A DNA stretch of 57,742 nt from assembly GCF_000284415.1 (NCBI RefSeq), contig NC_017059.1, forward strand, positions 1,159,156 through 1,216,897, in the 5' to 3' direction. Under the pieces are notes generated by a model. That model worked only from the letters and a program-made list of their open reading frames with translations, made no database searches and was not told where the DNA came from. Positions within the stretch are counted from its first letter, which is position 1, and every line of letters begins with the position of its first letter. Source of the DNA: Pararhodospirillum photometricum DSM 122 (GTDB lineage Bacteria; Pseudomonadota; Alphaproteobacteria; Rhodospirillales; Rhodospirillaceae). Made by a program: the position numbers and the translations under genes. Positions 31,969-36,437 of this stretch are shown piece after piece.

Positions 31969-32034
31969 GACGCGGGGCTGTCGCCCCGGACCCCACCTGG
32001 AGGCTGACGCCTCCAGACCTCCGCTTTCTTTTAT
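31969..32034. repeat. Intergenic repeat family B, copy 1
   Basis: A 66-base element with two hairpins, GGGGC-TGTC-GCCCC and CTGGAGGC-TGAC-GCCTCCAG, ending CTTTCTTTTAT. The second copy at 55383-55448 differs at two positions only. It follows the PNPOx-like gene as a probable terminator. Confidence 0.85.
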
Positions 32035-32218: not shown

Positions 32219-34090
32219 TCATTTTTCAGGACTTGGATCTGCCGGAGAGGCAGTGAGCGCCGGTGCATGTTGGGTCATGTTAAACCGGAGCACCTCTTCG
32301 AAGACGCGATTGCGTGCCTTGGCATCAATGATCAATGAGGCCGCAGGCATCACGTAGAGGTGCAGTGGGATATCGTCGTTTGAGCCAGTGGCGAAGTCGT
32401 TATAGACAACTCGCTCGCTCAACGAGAACACGTCCTTGAACCCAGAGCGTTTCATATCCCTGTAAAATTCGTCATCGATCTCGACGATAGAGAAGGCGAA
32501 AACCTCCCGCACCGTCTTAATCCTATCTACCAACTCACTGGCATAGAGGCGGCACTGGAGTAGTGCCTTGTTATTATCATAGATATCGGCACCAGGTTTC
32601 TTGAATTCAATGATGACAAGTTTATTGGGGTGGCCTTCATTGTCCTTTGAAAAAAAGGCTGCGACATCGGGTTTGCGCTTCTGTTTCGATTCTGTTTCGA
32701 CGCCAACCTCGCGAACGATTTTCGCTAGAGTTGCATCGCTGTAGATGCTTGAATAGGAAAGGAACTTGTCGTCCACGAGCCAGACATTGTTTTCTCGGAT
32801 ATCGTCACCGTTACTTTTTTTTCTTAGAATTGCATTGTGGAGGAACTCTTCCGCAGATTCGCGGGGCATCTTAGCTAACGAGTCGATAACCAGTGCCCGA
32901 TGGACGATAAAGCGAGCCAAGTCGTCACTGGCGAGATGAGATATATCGTCGAAGTTCGCCTTGCGACCCTCGATCAAGTCTTCAACCAGCCGATCTTCGC
33001 GCCGTGCCTGTTGTGCACGGTAAGTTTTAACGATCTCGTCAGCGTCCAGCATCGCAGCATCCCCGTTTAAGGAGCTGATGGTGATAAATGGATAATATTT
33101 TTTGAGTTTCTCAATGTTAGATTCTTTGAATGAATCGATATCGCCTTTCGCTGTCTCGTTAATCATGGCCAAACATTCGTCGTGGATACGCGGCATGAGC
33201 ATCTCACGGCTGATCGGCGACACGAGATCTACATCAGAGTCCGTTTTGGGAATTTCGAGTTTCTGGCGCTCGATATTGGAAGTGCGGTTTAGGTAGGTCG
33301 ATGTGACTGAAATGAGGTAACGGCAGATATCGAAGCGCTTGCTGATCTGATATTCTTCAACACAGAGCTGGTCAGCGCAGAGCATTGCGACTATGCCCTT
33401 ACGCGGGGCCTCTTCGCGGAAAAGATAGCAGTCGAACGTCTCGCCACCGACCTCGAAAAACCGGGTTTTCAGCGCCTCAATTTGGTCTGCCGAAAAAGAA
33501 AATGACACCGGAAATGGCTGCTGCGAATTATGGGTGAAGGTGACCGATATGATCTGTCCGGCCTGCTTCTTCAGGAACAACAACAGGCGCAGGTCGTCGC
33601 ACATCGAATTTATCAGTTTTGCGACCTGTGTATTGATTTCTTCCTTCGGCTCGGAGATGGTTATCCTCGTATTCGGACTACCGGAAGATTTAGTTCTTTT
33701 AACATCCTCTAACTTAAAATCGGGGGTGTAGCGGAATTCGACTAGGTGCTCTGCTAGTTGGCTGCGAACCTCGACGCGATTAGCATATTTCAAAAAGGCG
33801 AGGCGACCGACACCCTTGCCACCAATATCGTCTTTGTGGCCGGTGCAAATTTCGTCGAAATAATTCAGGTTGTCTTGGGTGAATCCCTCGCCATTGTCGG
33901 AAATGATGATGCGGTCGAGGACGTTGCGCTCTTCGTCACTAAATAGCTTCTTCTGAAAAAAGAGTTCGACACAAATCTCATTGGCGCCAGCGTGGATTGA
34001 ATTAGTGATGCCTTCACGGATCACGTCTCGTGCTGTCACGCCACCTTTGTAATGTTCAGCAATGAATTTTTTAAGATTGATCCGTGCCAT
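32219..34090 (-). CDS. GHKL-ATPase protein with C-terminal PD-(D/E)XK-like motif, putative defence gene
   Basis: A 623-residue protein from the ATG before ARINLKKFIAEHYKGG; a start 18 codons earlier is poorer. The N-terminus is a GHKL (Hsp90/MutL/MORC-type) ATPase: N box REGITNSIHAGA (E26, N30), DNGEGF (65-70), and the lid GGKGVGRLAFLKYA (90-103). A long helical middle follows. Near the C-terminus, KPDVAAFF (D475), then VIIEFKKPG (E495, K497) matches the D...ExK core of PD-(D/E)XK nucleases. GHKL ATPases linked to such nucleases are known from restriction-like defence loci. The gene is visibly AT-richer than its neighbours, uses many A/T-ending codons and stands alone between unrelated genes, suggesting transfer. 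No methylase or helicase partner is adjacent. Confidence 0.7.
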   Translation of the reverse strand: MARINLKKFIAEHYKGGVTARDVIREGITNSIHAGANEICVELFFQKKLFSDEERNVLDRIIISDNGEGFTQDNLNYFDEICTGHKDDIGGKGVGRLAFLKYANRVEVRSQLAEHLVEFRYTPDFKLEDVKRTKSSGSPNTRITISEPKEEINTQVAKLINSMCDDLRLLLFLKKQAGQIISVTFTHNSQQPFPVSFSFSADQIEALKTRFFEVGGETFDCYLFREEAPRKGIVAMLCADQLCVEEYQISKRFDICRYLISVTSTYLNRTSNIERQKLEIPKTDSDVDLVSPISREMLMPRIHDECLAMINETAKGDIDSFKESNIEKLKKYYPFITISSLNGDAAMLDADEIVKTYRAQQARREDRLVEDLIEGRKANFDDISHLASDDLARFIVHRALVIDSLAKMPRESAEEFLHNAILRKKSNGDDIRENNVWLVDDKFLSYSSIYSDATLAKIVREVGVETESKQKRKPDVAAFFSKDNEGHPNKLVIIEFKKPGADIYDNNKALLQCRLYASELVDRIKTVREVFAFSIVEIDDEFYRDMKRSGFKDVFSLSERVVYNDFATGSNDDIPLHLYVMPAASLIIDAKARNRVFEEVLRFNMTQHAPALTASPADPSPEK

Positions 34091-34303
34091 GATGACTGTT
34101 GAGTTAGGCCAGCCTCTGACGGGCAAGTTTATCACGAGACTCACGATGCCACAGAAGGTGACGCCTTGCTAGCCTAGGAGTTCGCGACCGTCCAAAAGAT
34201 CGTGCCCCATCACATGGTGTTACCGTCGTGTCGCGGCCTTCACCGCCTTGTCGCGTGCAGGACGTAGGCCATGCCTCGGGGCGTGGTCCGTCGAGCGAGG
34301 CGG

Positions 34304-34325
34304 CTGGGGAGGCTCGCCTCCCCAG
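34304..34325 (-). repeat. Hairpin repeat family A, copy 6 (flavodoxin terminator)
   Basis: CTGGGGAGGC / GCCTCCCCAG with a two-base loop, ten bases beyond the flavodoxin stop on the minus strand. Confidence 0.75.
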
Positions 34326-34335
34326 CCTGGGGGGG

Positions 34336-35068: not shown

Positions 35069-35132
35069 CCTTCGTTTCGTTGGGGCGCGGGCTTGGTCTT
35101 TAGGAACTCGGTTGAAACGCAAGGAGGTTTTG

Positions 35133-36437
35133 ATGAGTGAGAGCGCAAAAAGTGACCTCCTATCGGCGGGTCATCGGGTGGAAGAGGGGCGTAACCTCGT
35201 CGTTTGTTGTGATGGGACCAGCAATGAGCCGGCGCCGACGGGGGCGGGTGTTGGATCGACCAATGTCGTTCATCTGTTTCGCGCGTTGAGCAAGGGGGAG
35301 AAGCAGATTGTTTACTATGACCCTGGGGTGGGGACCTCGGGGATTTTGGATTTGTGGCGGCGGCGGTCCAATCGGATCCGGGCTTTGGCCGAGCAGGCGA
35401 CCGGGGATGGGCTCGATGAGCATGTGATCAGCGCCTATCGGTTTCTCTGCGAGCACTACCGGGCGGGGGATCGTATTTCCCTGTTCGGGTTCAGCCGTGG
35501 GGCCTACGCGGCGCGGGTGGTGGCTGGGGTAATCCATCAGGTGGGCTTGCTTCGGCCCGAGCAGGCCAATCTCGCGGCTTTCGCGGTGAAGGCCTATAAG
35601 ATGTCGAGCGATCAGGACAATCTCGCGATTGGCTGGCGGTTTGCCCGTGACGTGGGGACGCGACGGGTCTTGATCCATTTCTTGGGGCTGTGGGACACCG
35701 TGGGCTCCATGATCGCGCCCTTGAGGGATCGCTTGGCCATTGGCCTTGTCCATTTGCCCTACACGCGCCGCAATCCTTCGGTTGCTTGTGTGCGCCACGC
35801 CATGGCGATTGATGAGCGTCGGCGGATGTTTCGGGTGAATTTGTGGCACCCCGGTCCTTTTGTGCCGAATCCTTTCGATCCTCAGAAGACCGTGGCGCAG
35901 GATGTGGCGCAGGTTTGGTTCGCCGGAGCACATGGCGATATTGGTGGGGGACACGCCGAGGCTGAAAGCGGTCTGTGTAAGGTTTCGCTCCGCTGGATGG
36001 TGGGCGAGGCGGCGGCGGCTGGGCTTTCCTTCAACAAAAAAATGCTGAAAAACATCGTTGAGGGGCAAAAGAACGCGCGTGGCGAGGTGGTCTATGCCCC
36101 GGAAGATCCCCTGGGGCCTCTTCACCCAGAGCCGACCGGGCCGTGGTGGCTGCTTGAATATTTTCCCAAATCAGTCAAGTACCGGGAATGGCCCGAGCGT
36201 AAAACGTTGGGCGGCTGGTATCTGCCGGCGGGTGAACCGCGTGTGCTCGGCGACACCGCTTGGATCCATGAATCCGTGGTGACGCGGGCGGCCCAGGGGT
36301 ATGCCCCGGTCAATCTTGGGGCAGACATCACGCGCTATCAGGTCGCGCGGACCCTGCCCCTGCCCCCTCCAAGGAACATGGGAGAGGGGGAGGCCGGGGA
36401 TTCCCAGCCGTCTCCTTCCTTTCTCATTGATTCATAA
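35133..36437 (+). CDS. DUF2235 alpha/beta-hydrolase (Tle1-like)
   Basis: A 434-residue soluble protein from the ATG at 35133 behind AAGGAGG. Family marks: NLVVCCDGTSNEP at residues 21-33, the nucleophile elbow LFGFSRGAYAAR (Ser121), HFLGLWDTVGSM, and WFAGAHGDIGGGH with the catalytic-type His. DUF2235 proteins include type VI secretion phospholipase effectors (Tle1), but many family members stand alone and act in the cytosol. No VgrG, adaptor or immunity gene is adjacent, so an effector role is not supported here. The C-terminus ends in a low-complexity Pro/Gly stretch that may be drifted sequence. Confidence 0.82.
   Translation: MSESAKSDLLSAGHRVEEGRNLVVCCDGTSNEPAPTGAGVGSTNVVHLFRALSKGEKQIVYYDPGVGTSGILDLWRRRSNRIRALAEQATGDGLDEHVISAYRFLCEHYRAGDRISLFGFSRGAYAARVVAGVIHQVGLLRPEQANLAAFAVKAYKMSSDQDNLAIGWRFARDVGTRRVLIHFLGLWDTVGSMIAPLRDRLAIGLVHLPYTRRNPSVACVRHAMAIDERRRMFRVNLWHPGPFVPNPFDPQKTVAQDVAQVWFAGAHGDIGGGHAEAESGLCKVSLRWMVGEAAAAGLSFNKKMLKNIVEGQKNARGEVVYAPEDPLGPLHPEPTGPWWLLEYFPKSVKYREWPERKTLGGWYLPAGEPRVLGDTAWIHESVVTRAAQGYAPVNLGADITRYQVARTLPLPPPRNMGEGEAGDSQPSPSFLIDS

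What the first reader, a model, noticed from the sequence alone, without database searches (positions are those of the whole stretch)
32219..34090. Solitary GHKL ATPase with PD-(D/E)XK-like C-terminus: candidate single-gene defence system
Seen: N box (E26, N30), DNGEGF and GGKGVGR lid motifs of GHKL ATPases in the N-terminus, and D475 ... E495-x-K497 in the C-terminus. The gene is AT-richer than everything around it and stands alone between PNPOx-like and flavodoxin genes. Known: MutL/MORC-like GHKL ATPases fused or linked to restriction endonuclease folds were described as parts of restriction-like systems in bacteria. Inference: an imported antiphage nuclease whose ATPase gates DNA cleavage, with no separate partner visible.
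Basis: partly seen in the sequence, partly recalled or inferred. Interest (0 to 1): 0.72.

Follow-up and report, generated by a model that had tools for sequence, protein, structure and literature searches.

The report
Imported ATPase-nuclease, probable phage defence gene
This is a horizontally acquired bacterial gene that fuses an ATP-driven clamp to a probable DNA-cutting domain; one similarly built protein is known to block phages, so it is a good candidate for a one-gene phage defence but not a new kind of system.

Summary
Window 32219-34090 (-) encodes a 623-residue protein with a GHKL ATPase N-terminus and a C-terminus bearing E414, D475 and E495-x-K497, fixed or nearly so in 159 close and 124 distant homologues. 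The gene is the most AT-rich of 35 called window ORFs and stands alone between Pyridox_ox_2 and flavodoxin genes. Its clade is absent from the 40 related genomes searched; it is AT-richer than its flanks in 14 of 14 loci. It belongs to a tight clade (65-97% identity, synonymous sites saturated) within a wider superfamily of GHKL-nuclease proteins (profile match 100%). On plasmids that superfamily lies near restriction, CBASS, Shedu or SIR2 genes in 7 of 11 loci, against 2 of 11 control stretches; one phage carries a member. The architecture was described in 2008 (paraMORC3), and VcSduA, of the same layout, was shown in 2025 to stop phages. Residues 1-315 model as a MORC/MutL/Hsp90-type ATPase; the C-terminus has nuclease-like elements, but the fold comparison barely covered it. 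The Shedu profile PF14082 is not matched. Verdict: probable single-gene antiphage nuclease, an uncharacterised clade of a known kind.

The parts
32219..34090 (-). Whole gene: 623-aa GHKL ATPase + PD-(D/E)XK-like nuclease, solitary
   Evidence: single copy in its genome
33146..34090 (-). Residues 1-315: GHKL ATPase plus S5-like transducer (N box E26/N30, D65-x-G-x-G69, lid 90-96, conserved R275)
32948..33145 (-). Residues 316-381: mostly helical linker, model confidence low
   Evidence: pLDDT about 45-62 in blocks of ten
32282..32947 (-). Residues 382-603: nuclease-like C-terminal domain with E414, H418, N435, W437, D440, S451, D452, D475, E495, K497
   Evidence: invariant in a 16-sequence superfamily alignment; HSDR_N 4e-5; strands 476-482 and 488-496 between helices 453-470 and 508-523
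34302..34327 (.). Perfect 12-base-arm palindrome between the flavodoxin gene and this gene; one of nine like it in the window (another at 31999, on the other side of the gene)

Best explanation
The gene is a horizontally acquired, single-gene antiphage nuclease. An N-terminal GHKL/S5 module dimerises when it binds ATP, as in MutL, MORC and Hsp90 (inferred from fold and motifs), and closes as a clamp on, or changes shape next to, invading or replicating phage DNA. ATP binding and hydrolysis bring the C-terminal PD-(D/E)XK-type domains (E414, D475, E495, K497) into a cutting state. It has no conserved partner gene and no methyltransferase beside it in the window, so self and non-self are probably told apart by a DNA state (ends, topology, replication intermediates) rather than by a modification mark. 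Shown here: architecture, conservation of both sets of catalytic residues, strong purifying selection, mobility, solitary organisation, defence-gene neighbourhood of the superfamily. Inferred: dimerisation, gating, DNA as substrate, the trigger, and antiphage activity itself.
For: ATPase and nuclease residues kept in 158 or 159 of 159 close and 122 to 124 of 124 distant homologues (120 of the 124 come from one branch). Full-length profile match to 14 distant GHKL-nuclease proteins, prob 100%, E 3e-45, 556 columns, candidate active-site residues in register. N-terminal fold MORC/MutL/Hsp90-like. Sporadic: the clade is in 2 of 398 genomes of the phylum sample and only in the window genome among 41 relatives. 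AT-richer than flanks in 14 of 14 loci; synonymous sites saturated with pN 0.11-0.22; omega 0.035 and 0.059 in the two pairs where it could be estimated. No adjacent gene conserved across unrelated hosts. Superfamily members on plasmids have annotated restriction or DNA-methylase, CBASS, Abi, SIR2 or Shedu genes within about 8 kb in 7 of 11 loci against 2 of 11 stretches taken opposite on the same plasmids, one-sided Fisher 0.040. A member sits beside the integrase of phage vB_RanS_PJN03. A Burkholderia member of the window's own clade lies next to a type III restriction-modification set. Precedent: VcSduA, GHKL plus nuclease in one protein; E27A and K557A both abolish protection (PMC12137116).
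Against: No activity was tested. In the close clade only one locus of 16 (L011) was clearly seen to have defence neighbours; looser ones are L009 (a 903-aa protein with a PDC-M37B/DolB match over part of its length) and L008 (a partial mad3 match). Of 112 neighbour proteins only 20 were scanned singly; the pooled scan lists 25 of 103 matching families, shows a second methyltransferase among the 112 that I could not place, and many ordinary metabolic and mobile-element families. PADLOC has no good model for the protein (best E 0.025). The window protein itself found no phage record (0 of 50,697). The clade is unusually slow-evolving for an arms-race protein. The C-terminal fold was not confirmed by a structure match. 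The plasmid control is small and I scored it knowing which was which.
Confidence: 0.65

Rival explanations
1. Abortive-infection version: on sensing infection the ATPase releases a nuclease that attacks host nucleic acid (tRNA, rRNA or the chromosome), stopping the cell rather than restricting phage DNA.
For: PD-(D/E)XK-type domains can be such effectors: WonB in PMC12137116 (passages seen) is one that depends on an ATPase partner and shuts down translation. The absence of a methyltransferase partner fits a triggered effector.
Against: VcSduA, the closest tested layout, protected at all MOIs tested, read by its authors as direct restriction that keeps the host viable. The motif region resembles HSDR_N, a DNA-cutting domain.
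Confidence: 0.15
2. A genuine Shedu protein (type I-D, SduA_C/DUF4263 nuclease core) with a GHKL sensor domain.
For: VcSduA, with the same domain order, was filed there by its authors. The profile of 14 distant relatives matches seven classic Shedu proteins over the nuclease at 91.6%, E 8e-7. It also matches two GHKL proteins with SduA_C hits at 97.6%, though that alignment rests largely on the ATPase half.
Against: PF14082 does not match this protein or seven distant relatives nor anything in its genome. The close clade alone matches Shedu at 1.6%; the window-led profile of 44 sequences at 21%, below HSDR_N at 49%. The two GHKL proteins with SduA_C hits (27.5 and 22.3 bits, cut-off 27) branch far away.
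Confidence: 0.2
3. A DNA repair or genome-maintenance factor of the MutL/topoisomerase sort that happens to be mobile.
For: The GHKL/S5 module is shared with MutL, topoisomerase VI and gyrase B; the strong purifying selection is more usual for maintenance genes.
Against: The clade is in 2 of 398 genomes of the phylum sample and absent from all 24 other same-genus and same-family genomes (some of them incomplete); AT-rich against its flanks in 14 of 14 loci; superfamily carried by plasmids and a phage, often beside defence genes; TIGR00585 mutl 14.8 bits against a cut-off of 180.
Confidence: 0.1
4. An anti-plasmid or anti-conjugation nuclease rather than an antiphage one.
For: Many superfamily members ride on conjugative or mobilizable plasmids (7 conjugative, 5 mobilizable, 7 neither, of 19 records), where exclusion of rivals pays.
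Against: A member is phage-borne beside an integrase and two lie on contigs of a viral collection (L068, L069); the tested protein of this layout acts on phages.
Confidence: 0.15

Closest known systems
paraMORC3 GHKL proteins with a C-terminal restriction-endonuclease fold (Iyer, Abhiman and Aravind 2008, PMC2292703; parts 1 and 2 of 4 read)
   Same: N-terminal GHKL with S5, C-terminal nuclease with an E-D-ExK signature, patchy distribution in proteobacteria, some solitary without conserved neighbours
   Different: No paraMORC3 reference sequence was at hand, so sequence kinship was not tested; this clade is compact (mostly about 610-630 aa) and very conserved
VcSduA of Vibrio cholerae VSP-II (PMC12137116, passages seen)
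   Same: One protein, GHKL ATPase then PD-(D/E)xK nuclease; both catalytic centres present; works alone
   Different: Spacing from N-box Glu to catalytic Lys is 530 in VcSduA (E27, K557 as printed) but 471 here; it is 529 and 531 in the V. fluvialis and Acinetobacter relatives, which suggests, without proof, that VcSduA belongs to their branch. The VcSduA sequence was not held
Classic Shedu (SduA_C, PF14082)
   Same: Single-protein defence nuclease; distant profile similarity of the nuclease core through the wider superfamily
   Different: No PF14082 match; weak direct profile similarity; different N-terminal half
Type I restriction HsdR N-terminal nuclease (HSDR_N, PF04313)
   Same: Residues 385-533 score 24.0 bits against a 25.1 cut-off; RPD and E-x-K in register
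   Different: GHKL ATPase instead of a helicase motor; no HsdM or HsdS gene next to it
BbrUII/HgiDII family restriction enzymes (NF050001)
   Same: GHKL-like N-terminus in one polypeptide (match to residues 23-122)
   Different: 16.5 bits against a cut-off of 550; similarity ends with the ATPase
MORC / MutL / Hsp90 / topoisomerase VI ATPase modules
   Same: Fold of residues 1-315
   Different: No C-terminal match to these seen

Membership tests
paraMORC3 (Iyer 2008) | GHKL ATPase with the conserved ATP-binding motifs | tested here: met
paraMORC3 (Iyer 2008) | S5-like domain following the GHKL domain | tested here: met
   model aligns through about residue 315 with MORC3, MutL and topoisomerase VI chains; that these parts hold the S5 domain is recalled; R275 kept in 159 of 159 close homologues
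paraMORC3 (Iyer 2008) | C-terminal nuclease domain with E-D-ExK | tested here: met
   E414, D475, E495, K497; the motif is tested, the fold is not
paraMORC3 (Iyer 2008) | sequence kinship to a named paraMORC3 protein | not tested
   no reference sequence held
Shedu (SduA_C / DUF4263) | match to PF14082 over its cut-off | tested here: not met
   no hit up to E 1; none in the genome
Shedu (SduA_C / DUF4263) | profile kinship of the nuclease core | tested here: inconclusive
   distant relatives 91.6%, window-led profile 21%, close clade 1.6%
VcSduA-like GHKL-Shedu | alignment to VcSduA itself | not tested
   sequence not held; only residue spacing compared
HsdR N-terminal nuclease | match to PF04313 over its cut-off | tested here: inconclusive
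   24.0 against 25.1 bits for the protein; 26.3, over the cut-off, in the genome search
BbrUII/HgiDII restriction enzymes | NF050001 equivalog cut-off 550 bits | tested here: not met
   16.5 bits
PD-(D/E)XK nuclease fold | core of helix, strands, helix, strand with D at one strand and E-x-K at the end of the next (recalled) | tested here: inconclusive
   model shows helix 453-470, strand 476-482, strand 488-496, helix 508-523, strand 529-535; the comparison with solved structures barely covered this part
antiphage defence system | protection against phage | not testable with these tools
   needs plaque assays
GHKL ATPase | Bergerat-type ATPase fold | tested here: met

The most novel reading that the evidence does not exclude
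The MARINLKKF clade is a separate GHKL-gated restriction system, distinct in trigger from VcSduA and Shedu. Its near-frozen protein sequence (65-97% identical among the loci compared across alpha- and betaproteobacteria while synonymous sites are saturated) would mean that it reads an invariant feature, such as a DNA structure or a conserved host or replication factor, rather than a variable phage protein. The clade would be a self-contained, partner-free nuclease switch portable between classes.
Probability: 0.3. Interest if true: 0.55.

Novelty: new member of a known kind. Interest (0 to 1): 0.38.

Why it matters
PADLOC 2023 and Pfam give this protein no defence label, yet one capped protein search already returned 335 homologues, so defence catalogues may well miss it. 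If active, it would be a compact one-gene defence with both catalytic centres predicted, and a way to ask what GHKL clamps sense in bacteria, a question shared with MutL, MORC and Hsp90.

Tried and rejected
A first structure model from 18 close homologues was poor (mean pLDDT 54.9, most of residues 377-490 under 50) and was not used; the second, from 44 more varied sequences, was better (74.2). The comparison with solved structures covered mainly residues 1-356; no nuclease was among the 50 entries shown, which says nothing for or against one. Foldseek searches (PDB, viral) could not be run: machine busy.

Integration scar: only one 18-nt repeat at 78%, both copies inside the gene. Empty site: in same-genus G398 the flavodoxin gene is 79% identical but the surrounding order is not kept, the only PNPOx match is 39%, and the ATPase gene is absent; absence is shown, a clean empty site is not. 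Phage records: none with the window protein, one with the distant relative P0241.

Dropped rows: L026 (a histidine kinase matched through its ATPase domain) was left out of the distant set A3; L020 belongs to the close clade; L028, L029 and L031 are second pieces of genes already taken. GC test: L004 (near-copy of L003), L015, L017 and L018 (partial) left out. Neighbour comparison: L002-L017, not L018; it is not empty: L003, L010 and L011 share a 415-445-aa protein (37-47% identical) about 6-8 kb away, not identified; L002, L008 and L016 share a stretch of 121-143 residues at 30-34%; L010 and L012 share a whole block, as do L003 and L004. Pooled scans took 112 of 116 chosen neighbours (four L004 copies of L003 genes dropped). 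Plasmid count: 11 of 19 records; H3, H5-H7 and H14 were left out as near-duplicates by equal scores, H1 and H16 as unannotated, H15 as a domain-only hit. H8 lies near the record end, so its downstream stretch is short. The two positive control stretches hold two cytosine methyltransferases and a CRISPR-type RAMP protein. The control was scored by me, not blind.

Literature: seven answered full-text searches showed no paper on this clade; most subscription journals are not held, so this is not proof of absence from print. Gu 2025 and Loeff 2025 on Shedu were not read (the first is not held; the second not looked up); they were seen only in the reference list of PMC12409362 (passages). PMC13092281: one passage only.

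Full report
What is there. The gene at 32219-34090 on the minus strand encodes 623 residues. The start at 34090 is supported by the conserved N-terminus MARINLKKF among homologues; the longer GTG form in the ORF list is not. It is the only match in its 3.88-Mb genome. Pfam finds HATPase_c_3 over its cut-off and a C-terminal HSDR_N match just under it. The gene is the lowest in GC (0.487) and GC3 (0.579) of 35 called window ORFs of at least 150 residues; its codon-usage distance ranks fourth. It lies between a Pyridox_ox_2 gene and a flavodoxin gene, with 270 and 245 bases between them and no repeats that mark an insertion.

Catalytic residues. In 159 close homologues N30, D65, G67, G69, G93, G95, R96, R275, E414, H418, E495 and K497 are kept in all, E26 in 158 (one gap) and D475 in 158. 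In 124 distant homologues these positions are kept in 122 to 124, while two lid residues, G91 and K92, are C and R in 120 of 124. Of the 124, 120 come from one search with a Vibrio protein and are much alike, so they count for little more than one branch. The more independent evidence is the 16-sequence alignment A6, in which N30, D65, G67, G69, K86, G93, G95, R96, R275, E414, H418, N435, W437, D440, S451, D452, D475, E495 and K497 are invariant.

Kinship. The clade's profile matches 14 distant GHKL-nuclease proteins over 556 columns, probability 100%, E 3e-45. A tree of 39 rows puts the window protein in a 14-row clade with full support on a long stem (2.46 changes per column), apart from the Vibrio/Acinetobacter, Phaeobacter/Sphingomonas and other branches, and far from two GHKL proteins with SduA_C hits of 27.5 and 22.3 bits (cut-off 27). 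Some branches of that tree are long and their places unsure. The superfamily profile resembles classic Shedu over the nuclease (91.6%) and HSDR_N (86.2%); the window-led profile resembles HSDR_N (49%) more than Shedu (21%), and the close clade alone gives 1.6% with Shedu. I therefore do not file it as Shedu.

Mobility and selection. The clade is in 2 of 398 genomes sampled from the phylum (nine genomes matched at all, the other seven weakly in one or two pieces, one of them a histidine kinase). Among 41 related genomes it is only in the window genome (a second genome there holds a distant relative, and some of the 41 are incomplete). A scan of genome contigs gave 17 loci, mostly scattered alpha- and betaproteobacteria (one MAG record is labelled Mesoflavibacter, and records of the window's own genome may be left out). 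The gene is AT-richer than its flanks in 14 of 14 loci measured, by 0.026 to 0.266. Synonymous positions are saturated between the window gene and all 13 others while non-synonymous differences are 0.11 to 0.22 per site; two other pairs where omega could be computed give 0.035 and 0.059. The protein is under strong constraint and so most likely working.

Context. No adjacent gene is shared across unrelated hosts, though a few farther genes are (listed under Tried and rejected), so it looks like a one-gene unit. In the window's own clade, defence neighbours are clear in Burkholderia ambifaria L011 (type III restriction enzyme, methylase and a DrmD-like helicase), with looser cases in L009 and L008. 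I scanned singly only 20 of 112 neighbour proteins; the pooled scan shows one more methyltransferase that I could not place, so the true number may be higher. In the wider superfamily the link is stronger: type I restriction plus Shedu, type I restriction, CBASS genes, SIR2 with XamI restriction, an Abi protein, an N-6 methylase and a LlaJI-type restriction enzyme. Four of the eleven loci have none by my criterion; two of these have VapC toxin-antitoxin genes and one a lone antitoxin-like gene. Stretches on the opposite side of the same plasmids gave 2 of 11; one-sided Fisher 0.040. A phage genome carries a member beside its integrase.

What is known. Iyer et al. 2008 (PMC2292703, parts 1 and 2 of 4 read) described paraMORC3, GHKL-S5 proteins with a C-terminal nuclease of E-D-ExK type, a subset of them solitary. 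The Vibrio cholerae study of 2025 (PMC12137116, passages) showed that VcSduA, of the same layout, acts on Drexlerviridae in E. coli and on phage X29 in its host, that E27A and K557A abolish protection, and that protection holds at all tested MOIs.

Mechanism and verdict. The best reading is an ATP-gated, partner-free nuclease that acts on phage or other incoming DNA (0.65). The ATPase fold, the two conserved catalytic centres, the constraint, the mobility and the solitary organisation are shown; DNA cutting, gating, the trigger and the antiphage effect are inferred. The finding is sound and useful but belongs to a known kind.

Noticed in passing
L070:6010-6687 (Bosea sp. RAC05 plasmid pBSY19_1): A 225-aa stand-alone ORF 39% identical to residues 369-593 of the window protein, but with the D and the E-x-K motif changed, directly after a ligA gene and near a cytosine methyltransferase and a DUF262 gene: possibly a dead nuclease domain on its own.
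   Followed up: partly
L094:2485-4509 (phage vB_RanS_PJN03, ON245412.1): A superfamily GHKL-nuclease relative beside the integrase is annotated as N-acetylmuramoyl-L-alanine amidase; the annotation looks wrong.
   Followed up: partly
L071:6406-9800 (Vibrio fluvialis plasmid) and proteins: A distant relative lies behind type I restriction genes and a Shedu gene; close copies occur in Vibrio, Aeromonas, Proteus and Klebsiella, a number of them with longest contigs of about 90-118 kb, which may mean an integrative conjugative element.
   Followed up: no
window 28433, 28473, 29689, 31999, 34308, 40271, 46881, 49077, 55413: Nine short palindromes GGAGGC(0-10)GCCTCC, against a mean of 0.18 in 100 base shuffles: a dispersed palindrome family, perhaps terminators or a repeat. 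Copies at 31999 and 34308 lie on either side of the ATPase gene.
   Followed up: partly
window 35112-36437: A gene with a T6SS Tle1-like phospholipase catalytic domain (PF09994, 265.6 bits) lies two genes from the ATPase gene.
   Followed up: no
L068:9797-11758 (IMG/VR contig): A superfamily member directly upstream of a large ORF that looks by eye like a tail tape-measure gene.
   Followed up: no
L010 and L012: Zoogloea and a Burkholderiales MAG share the ATPase gene (92% identical) inside a larger block of several homologous genes, probably a shared mobile element.
   Followed up: no
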